A stretch of 12,408 nt of DNA from Thioalkalivibrio sp. (GTDB lineage: Bacteria > Pseudomonadota > Gammaproteobacteria > Ectothiorhodospirales > Ectothiorhodospiraceae). The notes under the pieces are model-generated. The model was not told the origin of the DNA, made no database searches, and worked only from the letters and a program-made list of their open reading frames with translations. Position 1 is the stretch's first letter; the number at the start of each line of letters is the position of its first letter. The stretch covers positions 1 to 12,408 of the forward strand of contig SKNJ01000272.1 in assembly GCA_007120575.1 (NCBI GenBank), given 5' to 3'. A program made the translations under genes and the position numbers. Shown piece after piece: positions 1 to 12,408 of the stretch.

Positions 1-11
1 CGGGCCTGACC

Positions 12-46
12 AGCGCCGCATAGCCCAGAGGGCTGGGCTCCTGCGC
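12..46. repeat. Imperfect repeat, copy 1, with hairpin
   Basis: This copy shares the opening AGCGCCGC, the block GCCCAGAGGG and the block GGGCTCCT with a second copy at 101-141, about 89 bp away. Inside it AGCCCAG (22-28) and CTGGGCT (33-39) form a perfect 7-bp stem with a 4-base AGGG loop. A hairpin-bearing repeat downstream of a gene end fits a REP-like element or a structure that protects or ends a transcript. No T-run follows on either strand, so a standard intrinsic terminator is not shown. Nothing else is recognisable between the window start and the end of the YceI gene. Confidence 0.5.
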
Positions 47-100
47 GGCCGGGGCCACGCCCGCAGGAGGGGGAGCCCTTTCGCGGGTCCGGGTCGGGTT

Positions 101-141
101 AGCGCCGCGATCGCCCAGAGGGTCGGGCTCCTACTGGCGCT
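101..141. repeat. Imperfect repeat, copy 2, overlapping the yceI-like gene end
   Basis: This is the partner of the repeat at 12-46. It has an outer stem AGCGCC (101-106) with GGCGCT (136-141) and an inner GCCC/GGGC pairing. The stop codon of the leftward YceI gene (131-133 on the minus strand) lies inside it, so the mRNA 3' end would carry this structure. It could mark transcript termination or 3'-end protection. There is no T-tract. Confidence 0.45.
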
Positions 142-763
142 GCGCTTCGAACTCGATGATCAGCTCGACCTTGTCGCCGACGATGTCGCGGGTGAGGCCG
201 TAGGTCATCCCGAAGTCGGAGCGGTCGAAATGGCCGCGCATCGACGCGCCGAGGACATACGGGCGCCCGAACAGCCCGCCCAGCGGGAAGGGATAGCGGC
301 CCACCTTGTTGATGGTCACATCCAGGCGGAGCGGACGGGTCTCCCCGAGCAGCTCCAGATTCCCCGACAGGCGGCCGGTGTTGCCGCCGGTGGGTTGGTA
401 GCCGGTGGCGGTGAACCGCATCTGCGGATATTCCTCGACGTTCAGGAAGTCGTCGCTGCGCAGGTGGTTGTCGCGCTCGTCGTGATTGGTGAACACGCTG
501 GCGGTGTCGACCACGAAGTGGCCACCCTCCAGGTGGCGCCGGTCGGGATCGAAGATGAACTCTCCCTCGGCCTCCAGGAACATGCCGAGCACCCGGGCAT
601 AGCCGGCGTGATCGACCAGGAATCCGACTGCGAAGTGTTCGGGGTCGATGATCCAGCGATCCGCTTCGGCCAGGAGCGGACCAGGGGTTGCCGCGACAAG
701 GAGACCGGCCAGTGCGAGCCACCAGCGGCGCGAGACCGGAAGACGGGGCAGGGATGCGGACAT
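131..763 (-). CDS. YceI-family periplasmic lipid-binding protein
   Basis: The product is 210 aa. YceI proteins are lipocalin-like beta barrels that bind long isoprenoid or other amphiphilic molecules in the periplasm. Residues about 12-32 form a signal peptide with a twin-arginine-like SRRWWL start, a hydrophobic core and a likely signal-peptidase site near AEA at 32-34. The mature part shows the family pattern: WIIDPEHF near the start, an H-A-G-Y segment, the FTNHDERDNHLRSDDF region, the EYPQMRFTATGY strand, and a C-terminal DFGMTYGL...VGDKVELIIEFEAQ block. The length is normal for the family. GGGAGGT lies 5 bases upstream of the ATG and supports this start. The gene is downstream of the CDP-alcohol phosphatidyltransferase gene with a 49-bp gap in the same direction, so co-transcription is likely. 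The ligand is not determinable from sequence. Confidence 0.93.
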   Translation of the reverse strand: MSASLPRLPVSRRWWLALAGLLVAATPGPLLAEADRWIIDPEHFAVGFLVDHAGYARVLGMFLEAEGEFIFDPDRRHLEGGHFVVDTASVFTNHDERDNHLRSDDFLNVEEYPQMRFTATGYQPTGGNTGRLSGNLELLGETRPLRLDVTINKVGRYPFPLGGLFGRPYVLGASMRGHFDRSDFGMTYGLTRDIVGDKVELIIEFEAQRQ

Positions 764-812
764 GACGGACCTCCCGGGGTGTGGGGTGGTGGATCAGGGG
801 AGCTCGGTCTCC

Positions 813-1634
813 CTAATGTCTTCCCACTGTACGCGATCGTGCCCGACGACTGGCAGTGGCGCGTGGTCGGTGACGGTAGAGCCAAAGGCTGTCGACGGCG
901 AACGAGCCTGCCAGGGCCGCCAGGCCAAGACCTGCCACGAGGTTCGCGGCCGGATCCGGCATGCCGGGGAACAGCACCATCAGCAGGACCAGCGTCTGCA
1001 GGACGCAGATCGTCTGGCGTCGCCGGCTGGGTGGCAGGGCTGCAGAGAGCCACGGCGCGGGGTACGCGGCGGCCAGGAACGCATAGCGCAGGGCACCGAT
1101 GAGCAGGACCCAGGGGCCGACCGGGGCAAGCAGCCAGGCCAGCGCCGCCAGCGCCAGGATCATCACGGCATCCAGCTCCATGTCGAAACGTGCGCCGAAC
1201 GTGGACGCGGTGCCGGTGCGGCGCGCGACCGCGCCATCCACGCCGTCCAGGATCAGGGCCGTGAGGGCCAGACCGAGGATCACGAACAGCAGGGCGGCAT
1301 CCCCGGTCAGTCCCGGCGTCAGGGCGAGGCCCGCGAGAGGCAGCGTCAATGCGGCCCGCGCGAGGGTGACGCGGTTCGCCGGCCCGGGGTCGCCGTATGC
1401 GCGCGCGGGGGTCAGCGGCCGGTCGGTCGGGGTCGCGAGGACTAGCACGCTGCCCAGCAATAGCCACAGGCCGAGTTGCACCGGGAGCAGCAGCGCGGGG
1501 GCCAGGCTGCCGGCGACCAGCAATGCGCCGAGTCCGAGCCCCCCCAGCCCGTACCCCAGCAGGTCGGCGGCCCAGGTGTGGGCACCGGCCCGGGCTCGTG
1601 ACGTGTGCTCGGTCTCCTGCGATGCCTGTCCCAT
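813..1634 (-). CDS. CDP-alcohol phosphatidyltransferase family membrane protein
   Basis: The product is 273 aa. This family transfers a phospho-alcohol group from a CDP-activated lipid or alcohol, with release of CMP, inside the inner membrane. The full signature D-x2-D-G-x2-A-R-x8-G-x3-D-x3-D is present (D130, D133, G134, A137, R138, G147, D151, D155), so all metal and catalytic aspartates are intact. It is preceded by the usual N-x2-T-x2-R element around residues 87-93. Several hydrophobic segments follow, and an extra N-terminal membrane pair lies at about residues 20-70. I chose the ATG at 1634 because GGGAG lies 6 bases upstream. The reading frame extends to 1793, but the earlier ATG at 1706 has no visible ribosome site. 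The gene diverges from the dehydrogenase operon at 1785 and precedes the YceI gene. The substrate alcohol is unknown; phosphatidylglycerophosphate synthase is not indicated by context. Confidence 0.88.
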   Translation of the reverse strand: MGQASQETEHTSRARAGAHTWAADLLGYGLGGLGLGALLVAGSLAPALLLPVQLGLWLLLGSVLVLATPTDRPLTPARAYGDPGPANRVTLARAALTLPLAGLALTPGLTGDAALLFVILGLALTALILDGVDGAVARRTGTASTFGARFDMELDAVMILALAALAWLLAPVGPWVLLIGALRYAFLAAAYPAPWLSAALPPSRRRQTICVLQTLVLLMVLFPGMPDPAANLVAGLGLAALAGSFAVDSLWLYRHRPRATASRRARSRTVGRH

Positions 1635-1784
1635 CCGTGTCTCCCAGTAGCCCGTCTTCACGAGGGCCGTGGTGCCCGCGTAGTTCCGGCACGCCGGGGC
1701 ATTCATGAGGATCCGGTCCAAAGTTGCGACCGTATCAAGTTCGCGGAGTTGCCGCGCTGCACGGGCTTCGCCCAAGATGCACGG

Positions 1785-2813
1785 ATGCAGCAAGACACTG
1801 GGCCGGACCGGAACCGGCCGAAGAAGACCGCGCGGGCATTCTGGGTGACCGGCCCGGGCCAGGGTGAACTGCGCGCCGAGGCCCTGCCGGCGCCCGAGGC
1901 CGGGAGCGTGCGGGTACGCACTCTATATTCCGCGATCAGTCGAGGGACCGAGGCCCTGGTATTTCACGGGCGCGTCCCGGCGAGTCAGTATGCGGCCATG
2001 CGCGCGCCGTTTCAGGCGGGCGAGTTCCCGGCCCCGGTGAAGTACGGCTATATCAGCGTGGGCGAGATCGAGGATGGACCCGAGGCCGGGACGCGGGTGT
2101 TCTGCCTGTATCCGCATCAGGATCGCTATCAGGTGCCGCGTACGGAGGTCTCCGCGATTTCGCCGGATGTGCCACCCGAGCGCGCGGTGCTGGCGGCCAA
2201 TCTGGAGACTGCGATCAACGCGGTCTGGGACGCCGGGACTGGTCCGGGTGACCGGGTCGCGGTGATCGGGGCTGGCGCGGTCGGCCTGCTGGCCGCCTGG
2301 CTGATCCGCGCGATCCCCGGAACCCGGGTAACGGTCATCGACCCCAACGCCCGACGTGGCCCAGTGGCCAGTGCCCTGGGCTTGACTCTTTGCCACCCCG
2401 AGGCCGCCGCGGCGGAGCCGTCGCTTCGCGACGTGGATGGGGTCGTGCACGCCAGTGGCCGACCCGAGGGGCTGCAACTGGGGTTGGCTCTGGCCGGGGT
2501 CGAGGCCCGGGTTGTCGAGCTGAGCTGGTACGGCGACCGCAAGGTGGAGGTGCCGCTCGGCGAGGGCTTTCATGCGCGGCGCCTGACCCTGCGCAGCAGC
2601 CAGGTCGGGCGCGTTCCCCCGGAGCGTGCGGCGCGCTGGGATGGCCGCCGGCGCCTGGCCCTGGCATTGTCCCTGTTGCGCGACCCGGCACTCGATATCC
2701 TGATCAGTGGCGAGGACCGGTTCGAGGACCTGCCGGCGGCGATGGCGCGGGTCACGGGCCCGGAGGCGGACGCGACCCTCTGCCACCGGATCCGCTACCC
2801 TGCCGCGGAATGA
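1785..2813 (+). CDS. Medium-chain dehydrogenase/reductase, zinc ligands lacking
   Basis: The product is 342 aa with the MDR (zinc-type alcohol dehydrogenase) fold. The N-terminal GroES-like domain (about 15-130) reads LYSAISRGTE where zinc enzymes have a catalytic Cys. Where they have GHE, it reads GYISVG. The usual catalytic zinc ligands therefore appear absent, as in some BchC-like members. The Rossmann domain is clear: VAVIGAGAVG (158-167, GxGxxG) with D186 at the end of beta-2, which favours NAD(H). The ATG at 1785 is the most plausible start. The open frame continues upstream to 1605 through the divergent gene, but conserved sequence begins only after residue 15. No strong ribosome site is visible, so the start is uncertain. 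It is the first gene of a four-gene operon; the gap to the next gene is 22 bp. It probably performs an NAD-dependent redox step on an unknown substrate. Confidence 0.85.
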   Translation: MQQDTGPDRNRPKKTARAFWVTGPGQGELRAEALPAPEAGSVRVRTLYSAISRGTEALVFHGRVPASQYAAMRAPFQAGEFPAPVKYGYISVGEIEDGPEAGTRVFCLYPHQDRYQVPRTEVSAISPDVPPERAVLAANLETAINAVWDAGTGPGDRVAVIGAGAVGLLAAWLIRAIPGTRVTVIDPNARRGPVASALGLTLCHPEAAAAEPSLRDVDGVVHASGRPEGLQLGLALAGVEARVVELSWYGDRKVEVPLGEGFHARRLTLRSSQVGRVPPERAARWDGRRRLALALSLLRDPALDILISGEDRFEDLPAAMARVTGPEADATLCHRIRYPAAE

Positions 2814-2835
2814 AATCCCCCTGCCGGAGTACCGC

Positions 2836-3246
2836 ATGTACAGCCTGAACGTTCGCGATCATTTCATGATTGCCCACAGCTTTCGTGGCGAGACCTTCGG
2901 TCCGGCGCAAAACCTGCACGGGGCCACCTATGTGGTGGATGTCACCTTCCGGCGGGCGGAACTGGACGCGGACGGCCTGGTGGTGGATATCGGCCGTGCG
3001 GGCGAGGTCCTGCGCGCGGTGCTTGCGGATCTCGACTACCAGAATCTGGACGAGCGGCCCGAGTTTGCCGGCCGCAATACCACCACGGAGTTCCTCGCCC
3101 GCGAGCTGCACCAGCGCATGGTGCGGGCGATTGATGCCGGGGATCTGGGGGATTCCGCCCGCAGCCTGGAAGCCGTCTGCGTGACCCTGCACGAATCGCA
3201 TGTGGCCTGGGCCAGCTTCGAGGCACCTCCCGTCCCCGCGACCTGA
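2836..3246 (+). CDS. PTPS/QueD-like T-fold protein with degenerate active site
   Basis: The product is 136 aa, the usual length for 6-pyruvoyl-tetrahydropterin synthase/6-carboxytetrahydropterin synthase (T-fold, normally a zinc hexamer acting on dihydroneopterin triphosphate). Alignment by eye to E. coli QueD is clear along the length: AHSF (13-16) to AAHRL, LHGATY (27-32) to LHGHSF, VVDIG to IIDFA, LDYQNL to LDHHYL, NTTTEFLA to NPTSEVLA, and HES (119-121) to KET. Zinc ligands H14 and H28 and the pterin-anchoring Glu (E120) are kept. The third zinc His is A30, the catalytic Cys is A24, and the catalytic His of the Asp-His pair is Y68 after D67. Ordinary PTPS or QueD chemistry is therefore doubtful. 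GGAG 6 bases before the ATG supports the start. Its stop overlaps the next start (TGATG). It is probably a diverged enzyme or a ligand-binding protein of this operon. Confidence 0.85.
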   Translation: MYSLNVRDHFMIAHSFRGETFGPAQNLHGATYVVDVTFRRAELDADGLVVDIGRAGEVLRAVLADLDYQNLDERPEFAGRNTTTEFLARELHQRMVRAIDAGDLGDSARSLEAVCVTLHESHVAWASFEAPPVPAT

Positions 3247-4295
3247 TGGCGCCGCGCGTTCTCGGTTTCCTCGTCCCGGGCGCATTGGCGCAGCGCACAG
3301 GCGGATACCTGTATGACGCCCGCATGGTGCAGGGGCTCCGCGCGTGGGGCTGGCAGGTCGAGGTGAGCGAGCTGCCGGGGGTCTTCCCGGGACCGGATGC
3401 TACCGCTGCGGCGGTCCTGGACCGGGCGTTGGCCGGGTTCGCCGCGCACGCCACGGTGGTGATCGACGGGCTGGCCGGGGGCGCGTTCCCGGAGATCCTT
3501 GCGCGGCATGGTGATCGTTTGCGCCTGATCTATCTGCTGCATCATCCACTGGGCCACGAGACCGGCCAGGATGCCGGGCGCAGTGCCTGGTTGCTGGAGC
3601 GGGAGCGGGCCGCGCTGGAGCATGTGGAGGTGGTTATCGTCACCAGCACGTACACCCAAACGGTGATCGAGGGCTGGGGCGTCCCGCGCGCACGCCTGCG
3701 CTGCGTGCCGCCCGGCGTCGCGCCGGCGGAACCGGCCGAGGGGCCGCTGGTCGGGGAGCCTGCGATGCTGCTGACGGTTGGCGCGGTGGTCCCGCGCAAG
3801 GGTCAGGATGTGCTGATTGAGGCCCTGGAACAACTGCGGGACCGGGACTGGCGCGCGGTGCTGGCCTGTGACCCCTCGCGCGATCCGGCGTTTGCCGGGC
3901 AGGTATCCGCGCGCATCGCCGCCGCTAGGCTGGGCGACCGGATCCGGCAGGTTGGCGAGTGCACGGGCGCGGAGCTGGAGCGGCTTTACCGCAGCGCCTC
4001 GTTGTTCGTGCTGCCGAGCTGGTACGAAGGTTTCGGGATGGCCTTTACCGAGGCGATGGCGCATGGGCTGCCGGTGGTCGGGACCACCGGGGGCGCGATC
4101 CCGTTTACGGTCCCGGAGGAGGCCGGCTGGCTGGTGGCGCCGGGGGATGCGGGGGCGCTGGCCGGGGTGCTGGCACAAGCGCTGGATGATCCCGGGTGCC
4201 GCCGGACCCTGGGTCGCGCCGCGCGCGCCCATGCGCGTTCGCTCCCCGACTGGGAAGGGGCGGTGGCTGCGTTCAACCGGGCGCTCGCGGGATGA
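3246..4295 (+). CDS. GT4-family glycosyltransferase
   Basis: The product is 349 aa and has a GT-B fold. Such enzymes transfer a sugar from an NDP-sugar with retention of configuration, usually at the cytoplasmic face. The N-terminal acceptor domain (about 1-165) carries a PGALAQRTGGYLYD loop and a HHPLGHET segment (99-106). The donor domain starts with LLTVGAVVPRKGQD (175-188), whose basic residues normally hold the donor phosphates. It contains the E-x7-E element EGFGMAFTE (E261, E269) followed by GLPVVGTTGGA and GWLVAPGD, all typical of family GT4. No membrane segment or signal peptide is seen. The start overlaps the previous stop by one base (TGATG), and its own stop overlaps the methyltransferase start (ATGA), so translation is probably coupled. 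Sugar donor and acceptor are unknown; neighbouring genes suggest a pterin-like or lipid-linked acceptor, which is inference only. Confidence 0.92.
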   Translation: MAPRVLGFLVPGALAQRTGGYLYDARMVQGLRAWGWQVEVSELPGVFPGPDATAAAVLDRALAGFAAHATVVIDGLAGGAFPEILARHGDRLRLIYLLHHPLGHETGQDAGRSAWLLERERAALEHVEVVIVTSTYTQTVIEGWGVPRARLRCVPPGVAPAEPAEGPLVGEPAMLLTVGAVVPRKGQDVLIEALEQLRDRDWRAVLACDPSRDPAFAGQVSARIAAARLGDRIRQVGECTGAELERLYRSASLFVLPSWYEGFGMAFTEAMAHGLPVVGTTGGAIPFTVPEEAGWLVAPGDAGALAGVLAQALDDPGCRRTLGRAARAHARSLPDWEGAVAAFNRALAG

Positions 4296-5104
4296 GCGAG
4301 CACTTCGACGCGGCCTGGCTGGCGCTGCGCGAACCCGTGGACCATGCGGCGCGGCCAGGGAGCCTGGTGGAGGCCCTGTGCAGCCACTGGACGGCAGCCG
4401 GTATGGGCGGGCGGCGGCGGGTGGTCGATCTCGGTAGTGGCACCGGTTCCAATCTGCGCTATCTTGCGCCGCGACTGGCGCGTTGCGGCGAACAGGACTG
4501 GACCCTGGTGGACCACGACGAGGGGCTGCTGGCGCAAGGATGCGCGCCCTGTGCGGGGGTTGTGGTGCAGCTCGCGCAGGCCGACCTGGCCGCCGGGGAG
4601 CGCGTTGTACCCCGGGGCTGCGATCTGGTCACTGGCTCCGCGCTGCTGGATCTGGTGTCGCGGGCGTGGCTGGAAGATCTGCTGGAAGGCTGCCGCGCGG
4701 CGGGCGCCGCGGTACTGTTCGCCCTGAGCTATGACGGGCAAGTGCACTGGTCGGACCCTGACCCGGAAGATTCCCGGGTGCTCGACGCGGTGAACCGTCA
4801 CCAGCGCGGCGACAAGGGCTGGGGCGCGGCACTGGGGCCGGATGCGACGACTGCCTGCGTGCAGGGCTTGCAGACGCGCGGCTATCGCGTGTCGCAGGCG
4901 GCGAGCCCGTGGACAATCGACCACCGGCGGGCCGCGCTCGGCCAGGAACTGGTGCGCGGCTGGGTGGAGGCCGCGCTCGCGGTGGAACCGGAGCGGGCCA
5001 CCCGCCTGCGCGCCTGGGGCGAGCGGCGTATCCGTGCGTTGAGGGCGGGGCAGGTCACGGTGACGGTGGGCCACCAGGATGTGCTTGGCCTGCCTGGAGG
5101 GTGA
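4292..5104 (+). CDS. Class I SAM-dependent methyltransferase
   Basis: The product is 270 aa. Motif I is VVDLGSGTGSNLRYL (44-58), the glycine-rich SAM loop. An acidic residue follows in LVDHDEG (D74, post-I), then QADLA (D98), then the motif IV strand DLVTGSALLDLVS (111-123). The C-terminal third (about 150-270) holds DNRHQRGDKG-like and WTIDHRRAALGQELVRGW-like segments that may form the substrate lid; I do not recognise a named subfamily. The ATG at 4292 overlaps the glycosyltransferase stop by four bases. An in-frame extension to 4196 would bury the start inside that gene and has no support. This is the last gene of the operon, and the next gene converges on it. It may methylate the product of the upstream enzymes. 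Whether the target is a sugar O, an N or a C position cannot be told. Confidence 0.88.
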   Translation: MSEHFDAAWLALREPVDHAARPGSLVEALCSHWTAAGMGGRRRVVDLGSGTGSNLRYLAPRLARCGEQDWTLVDHDEGLLAQGCAPCAGVVVQLAQADLAAGERVVPRGCDLVTGSALLDLVSRAWLEDLLEGCRAAGAAVLFALSYDGQVHWSDPDPEDSRVLDAVNRHQRGDKGWGAALGPDATTACVQGLQTRGYRVSQAASPWTIDHRRAALGQELVRGWVEAALAVEPERATRLRAWGERRIRALRAGQVTVTVGHQDVLGLPGG

Positions 5105-5126
5105 GGGTCGGGCGGATGGTGGCCGT

Positions 5127-5161
5127 GGCACACGGGCGCATCCAGCAGAACCCGCGGTGCC
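5127..5161. terminator. Possible bidirectional hairpin between convergent genes
   Basis: This lies in the 93-bp gap between the convergent methyltransferase and regulator genes. GGCAC (5127-5131) pairs with GTGCC (5157-5161), and CGGG (5133-5136) with CCCG (5151-5154), around a 14-base loop. A second, weaker stem GACGG (5165-5169)/CCGTC (5177-5181) follows. No T-run is adjacent, so intrinsic termination is inferred only from position and folding. Confidence 0.35.
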
Positions 5162-5197
5162 CCCGACGGACGCGGGCCGTCACTGGAGCGCTATCGT

Positions 5198-6625
5198 TTA
5201 TACAAGGTGGTAGCGGTGCAGCTTGCGCCACAGGGTGCTGCGGTTCATGCCCAGGGCCCGCGCCGCGCGCGAGCGGTTGCCTGCGTGTGCCGCGAGAGCG
5301 GCGCGCAGACGGCGGGCCTCTTCCGGTTCCTCGGCGAAGCCGTCACCGGAGTCGGCTTCTCCGTTCCAGGCATGACCGTTCCCGTTCCCGTTCCCGTTCC
5401 CGCGACCGGGCGCGCCAGTGCCCGCGCCGTTCCCGTGCGCCGGAGAAGCGCCATGCGCGCGCGCGTCGAGGGTGGCCTCGGCGAAGCTGGCCGGATCCGG
5501 CAGGGGAAAGTCGTCAACCCGGCCGTGGCGTGCATGCAGGGCCAGGCACTCGCAGACGTTCTCGAGCTCGCGGAAATTGCCGGGCCAGGGGTGTTGCATC
5601 AGGCGCCCGCGCAACGCGTCGCCGATGATCAGTTGCTGACGCTCGCAGAACGCGTCGAGGGCGGCCGCAAGGTCCTTCGGGCGCTGGCGCAGCGGGGGCA
5701 GTTCCACCGTGGCGACCGCCAGACGGTAGTACAGGTCGGTGCGAAAATGGCCCTGCTCGGCCTGTTCGCGCAGGTTGCGGTTGGAGGCCGCAAGGATGCG
5801 CACGTCCACCTCGCGGGTGGTGTTCTCGCCGACCCGTTCGAATGCCCCGTCCTGGACCGCGCGCAGTAGCTTGGCCTGCAGGCGTGGGCTCATTTCGCCG
5901 ATCTCGTCGAGAAACAGCGTGCCCCCGTCGGCGGCTTCGAAACGGCCGATCCGTTCGCTCACAGCCCCTGAAAAGGCCCCCCGTGCGTGCCCGAAGAGCT
6001 CGGATTCCAGCAGTTCCTCGGGGATCGCGGCACAGTTGATCTCGACAAATGGGGCTTCGGTCCGTGTGCTGGCGCGATGGATCGCGCGTGCCAGCCGGGT
6101 CTTCCCGGTCCCGGACTCGCCCAGCAGCATCATGCGCACGTCGCTGGTGGCGGCGCGGCGGGCGAAGGCCAGGGGGGCGCGGCACGCAATGTCCCTCGAG
6201 TGGAAGTCGTCGCCGGCAGGGGCCGGGACGCTGGCCGGGTCGCTTTCCGCGGGACCGCGCGGGCGTCGGCGTTGCGGTTGCAGTGCGATCAGGCGCAGGC
6301 CGGAAGGGTGGCCCTCCAGTTCGAGCGGCTGGCTGACAATGCGGATCGGCAGGGCCCCGTCGCGCAGGGCCAGTTCGTCGTGAAAGTCCTGCAAGACGGG
6401 AACACCGCAGGCTGGGGCGTCGTTGTTCGTGGTGGCGGCGCGCAGCAGGTGTGCCTGGAGATCGACAGGCCCGAGTTCGCGCAGGCTGGGGGCGCCTTCC
6501 GGGGTGGCGTCGAGCAACTGGTAAAGCGCGTCGTTGGCCAGAATGACGTTACCGCGCTCGTCGGCGATCAGTTGCGGATCGCGACTCTGGCGAATGCAGA
6601 TCTCCACCAACTCGGTTGCTTTCAT
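5198..6625 (-). CDS. Sigma-54-dependent enhancer-binding regulator (PAS-AAA+-Fis HTH)
   Basis: The product is 475 aa, an NtrC-type activator that remodels sigma-54 RNA polymerase with ATP. Residues about 1-115 look like a PAS sensor ([18 protein letters not shown]); there is no receiver domain, so the input is a ligand or redox signal rather than phosphorylation by a partner kinase. The AAA+ domain (about 140-365) has Walker A GESGTGKT (169-176), the sigma-54-contact loop as GAFSGA (216-221, normally GAFTGA), Walker B LFLDE (237-241) and arginines R295/R301 in [10 protein letters not shown] glycine-asparagine linker (about 398-422) precedes a Fis-type HTH (about 440-475, [20 protein letters not shown]). 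AGGAGA lies 4 bases before the ATG. It is divergent from the RND operon, whose sigma-54 promoter lies in the shared region, so that operon is its likely target. Confidence 0.95.
5376..5402. repeat. Hexanucleotide tandem repeat (CCGTTC)4.5 in the regulator gene
   Basis: Four exact CCGTTC units (5376-5381, 5382-5387, 5388-5393, 5394-5399) plus a half unit lie inside the regulator gene. On the coding strand they read GGGAAC/GGCAAC-type codons and give a run of alternating Gly-Asn between the AAA+ domain and the DNA-binding domain. Unit number can change without breaking the frame, so linker length may vary between strains. Confidence 0.85.
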
Positions 6626-6654
6626 CCCGTCTCCTGTTGCGGGGGCCTGCCCGG

Positions 6655-6683
6655 AGTATGGTCAGGTGTTGCAACGCCTGCAA
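6655..6683 (-). promoter_or_regulatory. Possible sigma-70 promoter of the regulator gene
   Basis: On the minus strand TTGCAG (-35-like) and CATACT (-10-like) are 17 bases apart, 30 to 58 bases upstream of the regulator ATG. Matches to consensus are only 3/6 and 4/6. The dyad at 6663-6680 fills the spacer, so if this promoter is real the regulator may repress itself. Confidence 0.3.
6663..6680. promoter_or_regulatory. Distal operator/enhancer dyad for the regulator
   Basis: CAGGTGTTGCAACGCCTG is an 18-bp dyad with 8 of 9 base pairs symmetric and the core TGTTGCAAC. It shares that core with the dyad at 6746-6763; the two centres are 83 bp apart, close to eight helical turns. It is centred at about -178 relative to the predicted pump start site and about 46 bp upstream of the regulator ATG. 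Confidence 0.55.
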
Positions 6684-6745
6684 GGAAAATGCAACAACAG
6701 AAAATCAGCATATTCCGCATGCTGCTGCGGTTTCGCGGCATGAAG

Positions 6746-6763
6746 CCAGTGTTGCAACAGTGG
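6746..6763. promoter_or_regulatory. Proximal enhancer dyad (UAS) for the regulator
   Basis: CCAGTGTTGCAACAGTGG is an 18-bp dyad with 8 of 9 pairs symmetric, including a perfect TGTTGCAACA centre. It is centred about 95 bp upstream of the predicted sigma-54 start site, a normal enhancer distance. The core matches the distal dyad and fits a dimeric Fis-type HTH such as that of the neighbouring regulator. Confidence 0.65.
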
Positions 6764-6790
6764 AATATACGTACATAAGGAGATACTGAA

Positions 6791-6803
6791 TAACTAACTG
6801 ATA
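6791..6803 (-). promoter_or_regulatory. IHF binding site
   Basis: On the minus strand TATCAGTTAGTTA matches the IHF consensus WATCARNNNNTTR at every defined position. It sits in a locally AT-rich stretch at about -58 to -46 relative to the predicted start, between enhancer and promoter, where DNA bending would bring the activator to sigma-54 polymerase. Confidence 0.6.
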
Positions 6804-6821
6804 AATAAGAGAGTGGTGATG

Positions 6822-6839
6822 TTGGCATCCCCATTGCTT
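6822..6839 (+). promoter_or_regulatory. Sigma-54 (-24/-12) promoter of the RND efflux operon
   Basis: TTGGCATCCCCATTGCTT carries GG at 6824-6825 and GC at 6836-6837 with exactly 10 bases between, the strict sigma-54 spacing (TGGCA...TTGCT). Transcription should start near 6849, leaving a leader of about 178 bases before the adaptor ATG at 7027. An 8-base-loop hairpin CCATCG/CGATGG (6915-6934) lies in that leader. No gene was found between 6626 and 7026. Confidence 0.8.
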
Positions 6840-7026
6840 GTGACAATGGCATGTGCTTCTCTGGATATCTCAAGGATGGATCCGACTTGTTCGGTGATTC
6901 CCGTGTCGCGTGCCCCATCGCGTTACCACGATGGTCGCGACGACGCACCACCCACCGCGGACTGCGACTGGGGATTCGCTGCCGGACCGGGATGTCCGCG
7001 GGTTTTGGAAGCGAGGTGCAACGCTG

Positions 7027-8208
7027 ATGAGTATGCGGCTGACTTTTTCCTCTTTGTTCTCCTGCCTGGTGGGGGCCGCGGGGCTATTCGGCATGGCCGC
7101 GGCCGGGGCCTCGGTGGTGACCGTCGAGGCGGATCGCGCGGGCTCGCAGTGGGTCAGCGGTACGGTGATCCCCTATCGCGAGGTAACCCTGACCGCGCAG
7201 TCCAGCGGACGGGTGGTGGAGGTCGCCGGCGCCGAGGGTGATGCCTTCGAGCACGACGAGGTCCTGGTATCCCTGAGCGATGACCGGCTGCGTGCGCAGC
7301 GCCAGGCGGCGCTCGCCGAGATGCGCACTGCGGAGTCGGCGATCCGCGAGGCGCGCATGCAGTACGGCCGCGAGGTGGTCTCCCCGCAGTCGCGCAGCCT
7401 GGGCCAGATGCCCGGCATGGGCCTGCCCTCGATGTTCGACCAGATGTTCACCCAGCCGATGGGGCAGTTCATGGGCATGGGTGATCCTGCCCTGGATCGC
7501 CAGACCGACCTGTATTCCCGCTACATCGGCGTGGACCAGGCCGGGGCGCGCTGGGAACAGGCCCGTGCCCGGGTCGCTGAGCTCGACGCCGCGATCCGCG
7601 ATACCCGCTCCGAGGCCCCGTTCTCCGGCCTGATCATGCGCAAGCATGTCGAGGAAGGGGACACGGTGCAGCCCGGCCAGCCGCTGGTGACCTTTGGTCA
7701 CGTCGAGTATCTCCGGGTCGAGGCGCAGGTGCCGGTGCGGCAGGTCGGGCGCCTGGCCGAGGACGATTACGTGACCGTTGACCTGGACACGGGCGATTCC
7801 GTCGAGGCCCGGGTCGCACGCATCTTTCCGCTGGCCGATCCCCGGCGTCACACCGTCACCGTCAAGTTCGATCTGCCGCAGGGCATCCGCGGGGGTCCGG
7901 GTATGTATGCAGCAGTTCGTCTGCCGGCCGGCGCGGATGCACCCGAACGTGCCCTGATCCCCCGCTCCGCACTGATTCCCGGGGGCGCCCTGCCACGAGT
8001 GGCGGTGATCGACGGAGCCGGCGACATCCGCGTACGCATGGTGCGCCTGGGTTCTACCCGGGGCGATCGGGTGGTGGTGACGTCCGGGCTGGAACCGGGC
8101 ATGCAGATTCTGGAACGCCCACCAGCCGGTATCCGCTCGGGGCAGCCCGTGGGCAGCGTCGTCCGGGGCCTGGATCGCAGTACCGCGGTCGGCACCGGGA
8201 CCATGTAG
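7027..8208 (+). CDS. RND efflux periplasmic adaptor (membrane fusion protein)
   Basis: The product is 393 aa. It bridges the inner-membrane RND pump and an outer-membrane TolC-type channel. A signal peptide covers about residues 1-28 (cleavage near AAAGA). The lipoyl half-motifs are GRVVEVAGAEGDAFEHDEVLVSL (split around 61-83) and SGLIMRKHVEEGDTVQPGQPL (around 200-220). They flank a short alpha-hairpin (about 85-195), and beta-barrel and membrane-proximal domains follow (HTVTVKFDLPQGIRGGPGMYAAV). The hairpin tip holds a methionine-rich insert, 7 Met in residues 128-151. GAGGT 9 bases before the ATG at 7027 supports this start; an upstream in-frame GTG at 6910 lacks a ribosome site and would remove the N-terminal signal. 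The pump gene follows after 154 bp. No outer-membrane channel gene is in the window. Sigma-54 control is likely from the promoter at 6822. The substrate is unknown. Confidence 0.93.
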   Translation: MSMRLTFSSLFSCLVGAAGLFGMAAAGASVVTVEADRAGSQWVSGTVIPYREVTLTAQSSGRVVEVAGAEGDAFEHDEVLVSLSDDRLRAQRQAALAEMRTAESAIREARMQYGREVVSPQSRSLGQMPGMGLPSMFDQMFTQPMGQFMGMGDPALDRQTDLYSRYIGVDQAGARWEQARARVAELDAAIRDTRSEAPFSGLIMRKHVEEGDTVQPGQPLVTFGHVEYLRVEAQVPVRQVGRLAEDDYVTVDLDTGDSVEARVARIFPLADPRRHTVTVKFDLPQGIRGGPGMYAAVRLPAGADAPERALIPRSALIPGGALPRVAVIDGAGDIRVRMVRLGSTRGDRVVVTSGLEPGMQILERPPAGIRSGQPVGSVVRGLDRSTAVGTGTM

Positions 8209-8218
8209 CTGTTCATTG

Positions 8219-8234
8219 GAGGGCGGTAGCCCTC
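8219..8234 (+). other. Hairpin just after the adaptor stop codon
   Basis: GAGGGC (8219-8224) pairs perfectly with GCCCTC (8229-8234) around a GGTA loop, 11 bases after the adaptor stop. The bases after it are TCCCC rather than a T-run, so it is more likely an mRNA-stability or partial attenuation structure than a full terminator, since the pump gene downstream needs the same transcript. Confidence 0.4.
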
Positions 8235-8256
8235 TCCCCGGTGCCAGCGCGGCCGT

Positions 8257-8316
8257 CACGTCACAGGCACGGTGCCGGGCACACGGAAACCGCGCGTGTG
8301 CGTTCACCGTGACGTG
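8257..8316 (+). other. Predicted branched RNA structure between adaptor and pump genes
   Basis: An outer 8-bp stem CACGTCAC (8257-8264)/GTGACGTG (8309-8316) encloses two smaller elements: the odd palindrome GGCACGGTGCC (8266-8276) and the 7-bp stem GCACACG (8279-8285)/CGTGTGC (8295-8301). The arrangement resembles a three-way junction. It lies 46 bases before the pump ATG and could tune pump translation relative to the adaptor. It was folded by eye only. Confidence 0.35.
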
Positions 8317-8362
8317 CAGCGGGCACCCGATCAGAACGAGGTAGCGAAACCGCAAAGGACCC

Positions 8363-11300
8363 ATGGACGAACGCGAACCACAATCCGGTAACGGCCATCG
8401 GGAGAATCCCGGGATCGCCGGGCGCATGGCGGCGAGTTTCATCCATTCGCCACTGTCGCCGCTGTTGCTGCTGGCGAGTATAGCGATCGGCATCCTCGGT
8501 CTGATGGTCACCCCGCGCCAGGAAGATCCGCAGATCTCGGTGCCGATGGTGGACATCATGGTGTCCTACCCCGGGGTACCGTCCGAGCAGGTGGCGAGCC
8601 TGGTGGCGCGCCCGCTGGAGCGGCTGATGAGCGAGCTGTCGGGGGTGGACAACGTCTATTCCGCCTCGCATCGCGGCCGGGCGCTGGTGACCGTGCAGTT
8701 CGACGTGGGCGAGGAGATGGAGTCCTCGATCGTCAAGGTGCACGACAAGCTGATGGCGAACCGGGACCTGATGCCGCCCGGGGTCTCCGAACCGATGGTG
8801 AAGCCCAAGGGCGCGGACGACGTTCCGGTGGTGACCTTGACCCTGTGGTCCGACGAGGTCGACGACGCCTTGCTGCGACAGATTGCGCTGGATGCGCGTC
8901 AGCAGATCAACGATGTTCCCGATACCAGTCAGAGCTTCGTGGTCAGTGGGCGCCAGGAGAAGGTGCGCATCGAGGTGCAGCCGGAGCGGCTGGAGGGGTA
9001 CCAGGTCACCCTGGACCAGATCGCGGAGGCGGTTTCCTCGGCGAACGCGGAGCGTTCCGCCGGACGTATCGAACAGGGTGGGTTGAGCACCTCGGTCTAT
9101 ACCGGCGCATTCCTGACCGGCGCCGAGGATATCGAGCGCCTGCTGGTCGCGGTCGAGGACGGCAATCCGGTCTACTTGCGCGATGTCGCCGAGGTGATCC
9201 ACGGGCCGGGCGAGCTGGACCAGTTTGTGCGCCACTACAGCGGACCGGCCTCGGAACAGCCGGATCTGGCCCCCGACGGGGCGACCGCGGTGACTCTGGC
9301 GGTTGCGAAGAAGCCCGGCAGCAACGGCGTGACGGTCGCCAACGGGGTGCTCGAACGGGTCGCGCAGCTCAAGGGCGACGTGATCCCGGACAACGTCGGG
9401 GTCGAGGTCTCGCGCAACTACGGCCAGACCGCCAACGAGAAGGTCAACGAGTTGATCTTCAAGCTGTTCGTCGCGACCTTCGCGGTCACCATCCTGGTGG
9501 GGCTGTTCCTGGGCCTGCGCGCCGCGGTGGTGGTGCTGGTGGTGATCCCGGTGGTGATCCTGTTCACGGTGTTCAGTGCCTGGGTACTGGGTTACACCAT
9601 CGACCGCGTGAGCCTGTTCGCGCTGATCTTCTCCATCGGCATCCTGGTCGACGACGCCATCGTGGTGGTGGAGAACATCTACCGCCGCTGGCTGATGAAG
9701 CGCGGCATCGACACCGAGACCTCGGTGGATGCGGTCCGCGAGGTCGGCAATCCGACCATCCTGGCGACCTTCACCGTTATCGCGGCGCTGCTACCGATGG
9801 GCTTTGTCTCCGGGATGATGGGTCCGTACATGCAGCCCATTCCGGTACTGGGGTCCGTCGCCATGCTGTTCTCGCTGGTGGCGGCCTTCGTGTTCACGCC
9901 GTGGCTGACCCAGCGCCTGCGTCCGAGCATGGCGTACCTGGAGAAGGCGACCGAGAAGGAGCACCGCCAGGCCGAGAAGCTGGGCCGGTTCTACCGGACG
10001 GCGATCCCGGGACTGGCCGACAACCGGGTGCGGGGCTATGCCTTCCTGATTGGCGTGATCGTGGTCTTCTTTCTGGTGGTCAGCCTGTTCATGACCACCG
10101 ATGTTCGCGTGAAGATGCTGCCACTGGACAACAAGCCCGAGTTCCAGGTGGTCATCAACTTCCCCGAGGGCACGGCGCTGACCGAGACCGCGACCCTGAC
10201 GCACGAGCTGGCCTCGGAGCTGCGCGAGTTCGACGAGGTGGTCGGCCTGCAGTCGTATGTCGGCACCGCCTCGCCGTTCAACTTCAACGGCCTGGTGCGC
10301 CACTACTACCTGCGCGACGAACCCTGGCAGGCGGACATCCAGGTACAGCTGCTGAACAAGGGCGACCGCAAGCGTTCCAGCCACGAGATCGCGACCGAGG
10401 CCCGTGCCCGCCTGACCCCGCTGGCCCATGCGGCCGGGGCACGCATCCAGGTGGTGGAGATGCCTCCCGGTCCGCCGGTGTTGCAGTCGGTGGTGGCCGA
10501 GGTCTACGGGCCGGACGCCGAGACGCGCCGCGCGGTCGCTCGTGACCTCGAGGGGATGTTCCGCGAGGCTGAGCATGTCGCCGACGTCGACAGCTTCCTG
10601 CAGGCCCCGCACCCGGTCTGGCACTTCGACGTGGACCGCGACAAGGCCTTGACTCGCGGAGTCACCGTCGAGGCGGTTAATCGTACCCTGGAAACTGCGA
10701 TTGGTGGGCGTGTGCTGGGCGATGTGAAGGCGCACTCGCTGGTCGAGCCGCACCTGATCGAGCTGCGCCTGCCGATGGCCACGCGCAGTGATATCGAGCG
10801 CCTGCAGTTGCTTCCGGTACCGACTCGGCAGGGTACCACGGTGCCGTTGTCGGAGCTGGGCCAGTTCGTACAGCGAGCCCAGGACGAGCCGATCTATCAC
10901 AAGAATCTGCGGCCGGTGGAGTATGTGACCGGCGAGGTCGTCGGGCGCCTTGCCGCGCCGGTGTACGGGATGCTGGAGGTCCAGGATCAGCTCGCGGACT
11001 ACGAACTTCCGGATGGCAGTCAGGTGCAGCCGCACTGGCTGGGTCCGCCTCCGAATGACGGCTCCACGGGTTTCGAGTGGGCCGGCGAATGGACGGTCAC
11101 CTACGAGACCTTCCGCGACATGGGCATCGCCTTCGCGATCGCGCTGATCCTGATCTACATGCTGGTGGTCTGGGAGTTCGGCAACTTCGTGCTGCCGGGC
11201 ATCGTCATGGCCCCGATCCCGCTGACCCTGATCGGGATCATCCCCGGCCACTGGCTCATGAATGCCGAGTTTACTGCCACCTCGATGATCGGATTCATCG

Positions 11301-12408
11301 CATTGGCGGGGATTATTGTGCGCAATTCCATATTGCTGGTGGATTTCGGACGCCAGGCGGTGGACCAGGGCCATGACGTTCGCGAGGCGATGATTCTGGC
11401 CTGCCAGGCGCGGACGCGCCCGATCATCATCACCGCGCTGGCGCTGCTGGCCGGCTCCAGCGTGATCCTGTTCGACCCGATCTTCCAGGGCATGGCGATC
11501 TCGCTGATGTTCGGCACGGTGGTGGCCACGCTGCTGACTCTGCTGGTCATTCCGCTGGGCTGCATCTCGGGTCGCCGCGCTTTCTGCCCGACGACCCTGA
11601 CCGAGAACGGCGAGGCCTCCGCGGTCTGCGCCACCGGCAATGGTAACGGCCAGGCCGGGACTGCCAGTGTGGCGTCCGGGGCGCCTCAGGGTGCGCCTTC
11701 GGGGGGATCCGGCGAGGCGCATGACCTGTTCGGCCCGCGCGAGGGCGGGCCGGTCACCCAGGCCGTGCAGTACGCCGGGCTTTATCTCAAGTGCCTGGCC
11801 CTGGCGTTCCTCGAGGGCTTGCGGGATCTGGCGCTTGCGCTGTGGCGCCTGATCCGGTCCTTCCTGGCGCGGCGTGGCAATGGCGGCGGTACCCCGCCGA
11901 CCGGTGGTGGGTCGGCCGGTGGTGGATCAAAGGGCCCCGTTGGCGGGCCGACCGGCGATGGCGCATCGGGTGCGGGTTCCGGTGCGGCCGCGGCGACCCC
12001 GCAAGCCCGCTCGGAGCGTTCATCGGTGGCCGCGACGCAGACGGGCCCGGTCGCGCAGGCGCCGGAGCCGGAGAGCCGCCCCAAACCGGCGACAACCGCG
12101 GCGCCCGACGCCGAAAAGGCCGATGCCAAGGCGGTCGGGGACGCGCCGTCCAGTTCCCCTCGGGCCGCGAAGGCCGGTTCAGCCGCCGCGAAGACGGCAA
12201 AGAAGGCGACCACTGCGCAGACTGGGGCGAGCGGCCAGTCCGCATCGACGACGACCTCCCGGAAGGTGGCCGCCGGGAAGACGGCCCCCGGGAAGACGAC
12301 CTCCGGGAAGACGACCTCCGGGAAGACGACCTCCGGGAAGACGACCTCCGGGAAGACGACCTCCGGGAAGACGACCTCCGGGAAGACGACCTCCGGGAAG
12401 ACGACCTC
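8363..12408 (+). CDS. RND efflux pump inner-membrane subunit, long C-terminal extension (partial at 3' end)
   Basis: The reading frame is open for 1,348 codons to the window edge with no stop. RND pumps are proton-driven trimeric exporters of the inner membrane. TM1 is followed by TPRQEDPQISVPMVDI and the porter-domain start YPGVPSEQV. TM4 has GILVDDAIVVVEN with D430/D431, equivalent to AcrB D407/D408 and typical of drug/HAE pumps rather than CzcA-type metal pumps. TM10 has LAGIIVRNSILLVDF, with R987 where AcrB has K940. The core ends near residue 1067 (LLVIPLGC), close to the normal RND length. At least 280 more residues follow: a linker, a hydrophobic/amphipathic stretch (about 1134-1171), a Gly/Pro/Ala-rich region and a Lys/Thr/Ser-rich tail. 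RND C-termini face the cytoplasm. AAAGGA lies only 3 bases before the ATG. It forms an operon with the adaptor. Confidence 0.93.
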   Translation, partial: MDEREPQSGNGHRENPGIAGRMAASFIHSPLSPLLLLASIAIGILGLMVTPRQEDPQISVPMVDIMVSYPGVPSEQVASLVARPLERLMSELSGVDNVYSASHRGRALVTVQFDVGEEMESSIVKVHDKLMANRDLMPPGVSEPMVKPKGADDVPVVTLTLWSDEVDDALLRQIALDARQQINDVPDTSQSFVVSGRQEKVRIEVQPERLEGYQVTLDQIAEAVSSANAERSAGRIEQGGLSTSVYTGAFLTGAEDIERLLVAVEDGNPVYLRDVAEVIHGPGELDQFVRHYSGPASEQPDLAPDGATAVTLAVAKKPGSNGVTVANGVLERVAQLKGDVIPDNVGVEVSRNYGQTANEKVNELIFKLFVATFAVTILVGLFLGLRAAVVVLVVIPVVILFTVFSAWVLGYTIDRVSLFALIFSIGILVDDAIVVVENIYRRWLMKRGIDTETSVDAVREVGNPTILATFTVIAALLPMGFVSGMMGPYMQPIPVLGSVAMLFSLVAAFVFTPWLTQRLRPSMAYLEKATEKEHRQAEKLGRFYRTAIPGLADNRVRGYAFLIGVIVVFFLVVSLFMTTDVRVKMLPLDNKPEFQVVINFPEGTALTETATLTHELASELREFDEVVGLQSYVGTASPFNFNGLVRHYYLRDEPWQADIQVQLLNKGDRKRSSHEIATEARARLTPLAHAAGARIQVVEMPPGPPVLQSVVAEVYGPDAETRRAVARDLEGMFREAEHVADVDSFLQAPHPVWHFDVDRDKALTRGVTVEAVNRTLETAIGGRVLGDVKAHSLVEPHLIELRLPMATRSDIERLQLLPVPTRQGTTVPLSELGQFVQRAQDEPIYHKNLRPVEYVTGEVVGRLAAPVYGMLEVQDQLADYELPDGSQVQPHWLGPPPNDGSTGFEWAGEWTVTYETFRDMGIAFAIALILIYMLVVWEFGNFVLPGIVMAPIPLTLIGIIPGHWLMNAEFTATSMIGFIALAGIIVRNSILLVDFGRQAVDQGHDVREAMILACQARTRPIIITALALLAGSSVILFDPIFQGMAISLMFGTVVATLLTLLVIPLGCISGRRAFCPTTLTENGEASAVCATGNGNGQAGTASVASGAPQGAPSGGSGEAHDLFGPREGGPVTQAVQYAGLYLKCLALAFLEGLRDLALALWRLIRSFLARRGNGGGTPPTGGGSAGGGSKGPVGGPTGDGASGAGSGAAAATPQARSERSSVAATQTGPVAQAPEPESRPKPATTAAPDAEKADAKAVGDAPSSSPRAAKAGSAAAKTAKKATTAQTGASGQSASTTTSRKVAAGKTAPGKTTSGKTTSGKTTSGKTTSGKTTSGKTTSGKTTSGKTT
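12257..12408 (+). repeat. 15-bp tandem repeat encoding (SGKTT)n, runs off the window
   Basis: Seven identical 15-bp units (TCCGGGAAGACGACC) fill 12302-12406 in the pump reading frame, each coding Ser-Gly-Lys-Thr-Thr. Upstream the units decay stepwise: PGKTT (12287-12301), AGKTA (12272-12286), SRKVA (12257-12271). Exact nucleotide identity implies recent expansion by slippage or unequal exchange. The 15-bp period preserves the frame. The array is cut by the window end, so copy number is unknown. Confidence 0.95.

What the first reader, a model, noticed from the sequence alone, without database searches (positions are those of the whole stretch)
813..5104. Unassigned dehydrogenase/PTPS-like/GT4/methyltransferase cluster with divergent CDP-alcohol transferase and YceI genes
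The sequence shows a tightly coupled operon (22-bp gap, then TGATG and ATGA overlaps) of redox, T-fold, glycosyl-transfer and methyl-transfer proteins, divergent from a phosphatidyl-transfer enzyme and an exported lipid-binding protein. No standard pathway I know uses this set. Inference: it may build a glycosylated, methylated small molecule (pterin-like or otherwise), possibly lipid-anchored, with YceI as carrier. I have an unverified impression that similar sets occur in other bacteria.
Basis: partly seen in the sequence, partly recalled or inferred. Interest (0 to 1): 0.7.

Follow-up and report, generated by a model that had tools for sequence, protein, structure and literature searches.

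The report
Unassigned GTP-derived membrane metabolite operon
This is one half of a widespread but undeciphered bacterial pathway that seems to turn GTP into a sugar-bearing, methylated ring compound and hang it on a membrane lipid, perhaps for use in decorating the cell envelope.

Summary
The operon is real: dehydrogenase, PTPS-like, GT4 and methyltransferase genes (1785-5104 +), with divergent CDP-alcohol phosphotransferase and YceI genes. The order recurs in four phyla: among loci long enough to test, window included, the dehydrogenase adjoins the PTPS gene in 73 of 76 and GT4 in 76 of 77. The PTPS-like protein is of the "PTPS-IV" subfamily (signature FGPAQ), a relative of solved SCO6650. 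It has lost a zinc ligand and the catalytic Cys and His but keeps the pterin-site Glu. Relatives add GTP cyclohydrolase II, RibD_C reductase and creatininase genes. In this genome these lie together on another contig, C100, and a second cyclohydrolase II gene lies elsewhere. So the pathway probably starts from GTP by early riboflavin chemistry. PTPS-IV linkage to cyclohydrolase and RibD_C is already in print (PMC5445326); I found no assigned product. New here: association with an LtaS/EptA-like transferase and with glucan genes opgG/opgH. My model is a GTP-derived, glycosylated, methylated alcohol attached to a phospholipid (about 0.5), whose head group may then move to a periplasmic glycan (about 0.25).

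The parts
131..763 (-). YceI-like exported lipid-binding protein (210 aa)
   Evidence: Pfam YceI 129 bits; YceI in 24 of 81 loci, window included
813..1634 (-). CDP-alcohol phosphatidyltransferase (273 aa from ATG 1634; frame open to 1793)
   Evidence: Pfam 46 bits; start codons; full D..DG..AR(8)G...D...D motif in 65 of 65 family members scored, window included
1635..1784 (.). divergent intergenic region, probable promoter region
   Evidence: position only; the one sigma-70-like match in 1-7100 lies elsewhere
1785..2813 (+). BchC/Tdh-like medium-chain dehydrogenase without the usual zinc-ligand motifs (342 aa)
   Evidence: conserved residues; SRGTE motif in 71 of 78
2836..3246 (+). PTPS-IV (SCO6650 family) protein, 136 aa
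   Evidence: Pfam PTPS 92.2 bits; family profile against 3d7j/SCO6650 E 1e-61; residues
3246..4295 (+). family 4 glycosyltransferase (349 aa)
   Evidence: Pfam Glycos_transf_1 102.9 bits
4292..5104 (+). class I SAM methyltransferase (270 aa)

Best explanation
The window operon is the core of an undeciphered, widely distributed pathway that starts from GTP. Inferred steps: a dedicated GTP cyclohydrolase II paralogue, perhaps helped by a creatininase-family formamidase, opens GTP to the diaminopyrimidine ribosyl phosphate; the RibD_C reductase makes the ribityl compound; the zinc-free dehydrogenase and the PTPS-IV protein (no classical PTPS catalysis) re-oxidise and rearrange it, perhaps closing a pterin-like ring; GT4 and the methyltransferases decorate it. 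The CDP-alcohol phosphotransferase then joins it to a phosphatidyl group, giving a membrane lipid with an unusual head group. Shown: the gene set, its conservation, the residue losses, and RibD_C (start only), cyclohydrolase, creatininase and FkbM genes together on contig C100 of the same genome. Inferred: every chemical step and the product.
For: Order and linkage in 80 named loci plus the window, from Pseudomonadota, Gemmatimonadota, Acidobacteriota and Actinomycetota. At least one of RibD_C, RibA or creatininase is present in 52 of 59 loci that extend far enough downstream (49 of 59 under a stricter overlap filter); of the 7 without, the window and three Thioalkalivibrio have RibA and creatininase elsewhere in the genome. 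Own contig C100: first 58 aa of RibD_C at 79% identity to a relative's, then RibA, creatininase and FkbM, in the order of relatives (L065, L145). A second GCH II gene sits on C11 and is probably the ordinary one (inference). One plasmid each of Peteryoungia and Agrobacterium carries transferase, flippase, CDP-alcohol enzyme, RibA, dehydrogenase, PTPS-IV, GT4, methyltransferase, RibD and cytochrome b within about 10 kb. A Streptomyces fungicidicus plasmid has CDP-alcohol enzyme, dehydrogenase, PTPS-IV, GT4, methyltransferase, flippase, creatininase and RibA; its RibA has Met at residue 120, the residue that I recall as making SCO6655 form the formylated intermediate (Spoonamore 2006, recalled), and a creatininase-like formamidase acting on that intermediate is published (PMC9478397).
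Against: No product or activity is known. The cluster RibA proteins keep the Tyr of ordinary GCH II in 32 of 34 loci (2 could not be read), so there the creatininase may have another job. RibA was found in only 34-35 and creatininase in 31-37 of 81 loci, some of which end early. The CDP-alcohol enzyme's substrate is unknown, and it was not within 3 kb in 14 of 68 testable loci. The flippase has no match in the window's incomplete genome or in four Thioalkalivibrio genomes. Two Streptomyces plasmids carry PTPS-IV without the other genes.
Confidence: 0.5

Rival explanations
1. The product is a soluble glycosylated, methylated pterin or pyrimidine cofactor; the CDP-alcohol, YceI and transferase genes are neighbours of another envelope function.
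For: The tightest unit is dehydrogenase/PTPS-IV/GT4/methyltransferase. Cyanobacterial pterin glycosides made by glycosyltransferases are precedents (recalled). One variant lacks GT4: Rhodobacteraceae SC52.
Against: CDP-alcohol enzyme within 3 kb in 54 of 68 testable loci and with the core on five plasmids.
Confidence: 0.22
2. The product is a membrane-bound redox cofactor that works with cytochrome b561 and YceI.
For: Cytochrome b561-like genes in the clusters of Thiodictyon, Peteryoungia and Agrobacterium, in 8 of 81 loci, and beside the transferase gene in 3 Thioalkalivibrio genomes (L184, L185, L186); YceI in 24 of 81.
Against: Cytochrome b561 was not found in the other 73 of 81 loci; YceI/b561 is a common pair in its own right (recalled).
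Confidence: 0.15
3. It is an alternative riboflavin branch, for example for secreted flavins.
For: GCH II, RibD_C and creatininase genes; BrbF is needed for riboflavin in Sinorhizobium (PMC9478397).
Against: None of the recurrent neighbour families that I annotated is a lumazine or riboflavin synthase (several had no Pfam match); PTPS-IV, GT4 and methyltransferases have no riboflavin role that I know of; own genome has a second GCH II on C11.
Confidence: 0.06
4. PTPS-IV serves coenzyme F420, as stated from unpublished work in PMC5041015.
For: Statement read in section 7 of that paper.
Against: F420 CofH over the curated cut-off in 0 of 8 PTPS-IV-bearing gammaproteobacterial genomes including this one, but in 2 of 2 actinobacterial ones.
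Confidence: 0.03

Closest known systems
PTPS-IV subfamily of COG0720 (signature FGPAQ), network cluster 62 of PMC5445326
   Same: FGPAQ in 76 of 81 loci, window included; neighbours PF00925 and PF01872 as in that paper (section 19 read)
   Different: The text of that section names only those two neighbour families for PTPS-IV and gives no product (its figures and additional files were not seen); it calls PF00925 GTP cyclohydrolase I/FolE2, whereas Pfam's name is GTP_cyclohydro2
SCO6650 / SCO6655 of Streptomyces coelicolor
   Same: the window family's profile matches 3d7j (SCO6650) over profile positions 1-130 of 132 at E 1e-61; I recall a 2008 paper reporting lost zinc and triad with a kept pterin-like site
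   Different: The S. coelicolor locus itself was not fetched; the S. fungicidicus plasmid locus stands in for it
BrbF formamidase of Sinorhizobium (PMC9478397) and archaeal ArfB
   Same: creatininase family; gene adjoins a GCH II paralogue here
   Different: the S. fungicidicus protein scores 37 against ArfB's cut-off of 180; activity untested; the paper's abstract and sections 6 and 10, which I read, do not describe this cluster
LtaS/GacH/EptA/BcsG head-group transferases
BchC and zinc-type threonine/sorbitol dehydrogenases
   Same: best NCBIfam match is BchC, 52.6 bits
   Different: far below BchC's cut-off of 291; the usual zinc-ligand motifs (recalled) are absent

Membership tests
Classical PTPS/QueD enzymes | three zinc His ligands | tested here: not met
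   H14 and H28 kept, third is Ala30 in 21 of 21 draw orthologues; HHH in 8 of 8 QueD controls
Classical PTPS/QueD enzymes | catalytic Cys and Asp-His pair | tested here: not met
   Cys is Ala24 and the His is Tyr/Phe/Met/Leu in 21 of 21 (the Asp survives in 1 of 21, and in the window); Cys and Asp-His in 8 of 8 controls
Classical PTPS/QueD enzymes | Glu that holds the pterin | tested here: met
   E120 in 21 of 21 draw orthologues; the control alignments ended before it, so it was not compared; the role is recalled
PTPS-IV | FGPAQ signature | tested here: met
   residues 21-25 of the window protein
PTPS-IV | linkage to PF00925 and PF01872 | tested here: met
   both types in relatives' clusters; in this genome on C100, a separate contig
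GTP cyclohydrolase II | zinc Cys motif and Tyr105 (E. coli number) | tested here: met
   own C100 protein has both; C..GD(6)C.C in 34 of 34 cluster RibAs
CDP-alcohol phosphotransferases | eight-residue catalytic motif | tested here: met
   65 of 65 including the window
BrbF/ArfB formamidases | removes formyl from the GTP-derived pyrimidine | not testable with these tools
   only family membership (PF02633 for L097) and gene pairing
Zinc medium-chain dehydrogenases | catalytic zinc Cys/His ligand motifs | tested here: not met
   SRGTE in 71 of 78 in place of the Cys motif, variants in 4, not found in 3; GHE strings in 4 of 78, none at the usual place. By pattern only; ligand places recalled
Coenzyme F420 pathway | CofH in the same genome | tested here: not met
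   0 of 8 gamma genomes over cut-off; own genome 66.6% complete
Phospholipid head-group transferases (LtaS/EptA type) | N-terminal long helices plus alkaline-phosphatase-type domain with Glu, Ser/Thr, Asp-His | tested here: met
   for the cluster gene of relatives, not for the window; membrane nature and residue roles inferred
Phospholipid head-group transferases (LtaS/EptA type) | transfers a phospholipid head group | not testable with these tools
   needs biochemistry

The most novel reading that the evidence does not exclude
The PTPS-IV pathway makes a GTP-derived, glycosylated phospholipid head group that an LtaS/EptA-like enzyme moves onto osmoregulated periplasmic glucans or another periplasmic glycan: a new kind of envelope decoration built from riboflavin/pterin chemistry.
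Probability: 0.25. Interest if true: 0.85.

Novelty: new variant of a known kind. Interest (0 to 1): 0.66.

Why it matters
PTPS-IV proteins are annotated as 6-carboxytetrahydropterin synthase, mostly with a queuosine tag (plasmid records), but lack that enzyme's catalytic residues, so hundreds of genes at least are probably misnamed. The cluster marks a GTP-consuming pathway of unknown product in four phyla, with at least 580 matching stretches in one genome collection and 21 strong orthologues, besides this one, in an even draw of 299 Pseudomonadota genomes. Naming the product would either add a new membrane lipid and glycan decoration or a new cofactor, and would explain the orphan structure 3d7j.

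Tried and rejected
Rejected: chance neighbours; queuosine/QueD role (residues); F420; RNA element in the window (no Rfam match at gathering scores); sigma-54 control by the adjacent regulator (19 matches at up to 2 mismatches against a shuffle mean of 13.7, reached by 20 of 200 shuffles). The methyltransferase model gave no substrate hint: many tied class I folds. A profile of the transferase found nothing meaningful in the PDB by sequence; only the fold comparison did. Glucan link as a general rule: not supported for this lineage, since opgG had no match in the window's incomplete genome and four Thioalkalivibrio genomes.

Counting faults found and mended: an all-ORF clustering gave many antisense families, set aside; one search counts suffered from fused frames and were replaced; one search's overlap filter in turn hid true hits, so recount without it (RibD_C 59 not 42, methyltransferase 74 not 69, creatininase 37 not 31, sulfatase-like 26 not 23 of 81) and count the flippase with a clean profile (41 of 81). 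Motif patterns for GT4 and methyltransferase were wrongly written; redone (66 of 80 and 58 of 69). The lone 'Met' was a stray match in L095; L045 and L087 could not be read.

Literature searches, open-licence PMC only, that found no description of the whole cluster. Paper coverage: PMC9478397 abstract and sections 6 and 10; PMC5445326 passages and section 19; PMC5041015 passages and section 7; PMC3223725 passages; PMC3818809 and the others in listings only; Spoonamore 2006 and 2008 recalled.

Full report
The window is contig C89 of a 2.15 Mb, 344-contig genome estimated 66.6% complete. Its nearest named protein relatives are Thioalkalivibrio. The dehydrogenase falls below the ADH_zinc_N cut-off and is closest to BchC at 52.6 bits, far under BchC's cut-off, so it is a divergent medium-chain dehydrogenase.

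Identity of the PTPS-like protein. The family profile matches one solved structure nearly end to end, 3d7j, SCO6650 of Streptomyces coelicolor (E 1e-61); the only other hit is weak. In 21 of 21 orthologues from an even draw of Pseudomonadota genomes (L002-L022) the third zinc His is Ala, the catalytic Cys is Ala and the catalytic His is replaced, while the pterin-site Glu is kept; the 8 QueD-type controls all have the classical His, Cys and Asp-His residues. The 80-locus set is partly selected on H14 and A30 because its search patterns contain them, so I rest this on the draw. The window protein carries FGPAQ, the signature that PMC5445326 gives for PTPS-IV (section 19); 76 of 81 loci have it, window included. 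That paper already reports PF00925 and PF01872 in the PTPS-IV neighbourhood; PMC5041015 assigns PTPS-IV to F420 from unpublished work. The linkage is thus partly in print; I found no product.

The wider cluster. Counted with family profiles at 60 bits or more on these 80 plus the window, 81 in all: PTPS 81 (the bait), GT4 80, dehydrogenase 78, methyltransferase 74, CDP-alcohol enzyme 65, RibD_C 59, flippase 41 (own clean profile), FkbM 37, creatininase 37, RibA 35, sulfatase-like 26, YceI 23, opgH 18, opgG 16. With a 30-bit floor and an overlap filter the numbers are methyltransferase 69, RibD_C 42, creatininase 31, RibA 34, sulfatase-like 23, YceI 24, opgH 20. All are lower bounds because many loci are short. 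Where the DNA reaches far enough: dehydrogenase adjacent in 73 of 76, GT4 in 76 of 77, methyltransferase next in 68 of 71, CDP-alcohol enzyme within 3 kb in 54 of 68, at least one of RibD_C/RibA/creatininase in 52 of 59. Family names of the added genes come; several further recurrent frames had no Pfam match.

The second half in this genome. The window lacks RibD_C, RibA and creatininase, as do the three Thioalkalivibrio loci long enough to tell. Contig C100 of the same genome holds the first 58 residues of RibD_C (79% identical to a relative's, cut by the contig end), RibA, creatininase and FkbM, in the order seen in L065 and L145. A second cyclohydrolase gene lies on C11. So the window operon is very likely half of a two-locus pathway. 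The link between C89 and C100 is by comparison, not by sequence.

Chemistry. RibA and RibD_C imply GTP to the ribosyl- and ribitylamino-pyrimidine phosphates (established riboflavin chemistry). A creatininase-family formamidase that acts on the formylated intermediate is published in Sinorhizobium (PMC9478397). In the S. fungicidicus cluster RibA has Met at residue 120, which I recall as the switch that makes SCO6655 stop at the formylated product; there a creatininase gene lies next door. In the 80-locus set RibA keeps Tyr in 32 of 34, the other 2 unread, which weakens that role for the creatininase elsewhere. How the dehydrogenase and PTPS-IV act is inference: oxidising a ribityl carbon and condensing it with the 5-amino group would give a pterin-like ring, and the kept Glu would hold the guanidine-like edge.

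Verdict. This is a real, conserved, partly noticed but undeciphered pathway. Confidence is about 0.95 that the core genes work together, about 0.8 that the pathway starts from GTP, about 0.5 for a lipid-linked product, and about 0.25 for transfer to a periplasmic glycan. The recount raised some linkage numbers; I left the odds as they were.

Noticed in passing
window 12250-12408: Ten and a half copies of a 15-bp tandem repeat at the contig end, inside the RND permease frame, encoding a Thr-Ser-Gly-Lys-rich tail.
   Followed up: no
window 5198-8363: A sigma-54 activator and an RND efflux pair follow the operon; relatives of all three lie in the same order in Thioalkalivibrio L031 and L034, but no sigma-54 site above chance was found.
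   Followed up: partly
L171 10001-10426 and L175 10001-10399: Two Streptomyces plasmids carry PTPS-IV without the rest of the cluster, near cupin, MEKHLA and BTAD-regulator genes; perhaps a second use of PTPS-IV.
   Followed up: no
L074 (record titled Natrialbaceae archaeon MAG): A contig labelled archaeal carries the cluster in a bacterial, Halomonas-like arrangement; probably misbinned.
   Followed up: no
L172 7834-13132: A Rhodobacteraceae plasmid has ribokinase, dehydrogenase, PTPS-IV, methyltransferase, RibD and mtnA, without GT4 beside them; a variant with possible sugar-phosphate links.
   Followed up: no
G305:C101:2498-3607: A second copy of the cluster-type RibA (54% identical over residues 2-367) in the same Ectothiorhodospiraceae genome.
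   Followed up: no
L184, L185, L186: In three Thioalkalivibrio genomes a cytochrome b561-like gene lies beside the LtaS/EptA-like gene, away from the core.
   Followed up: partly
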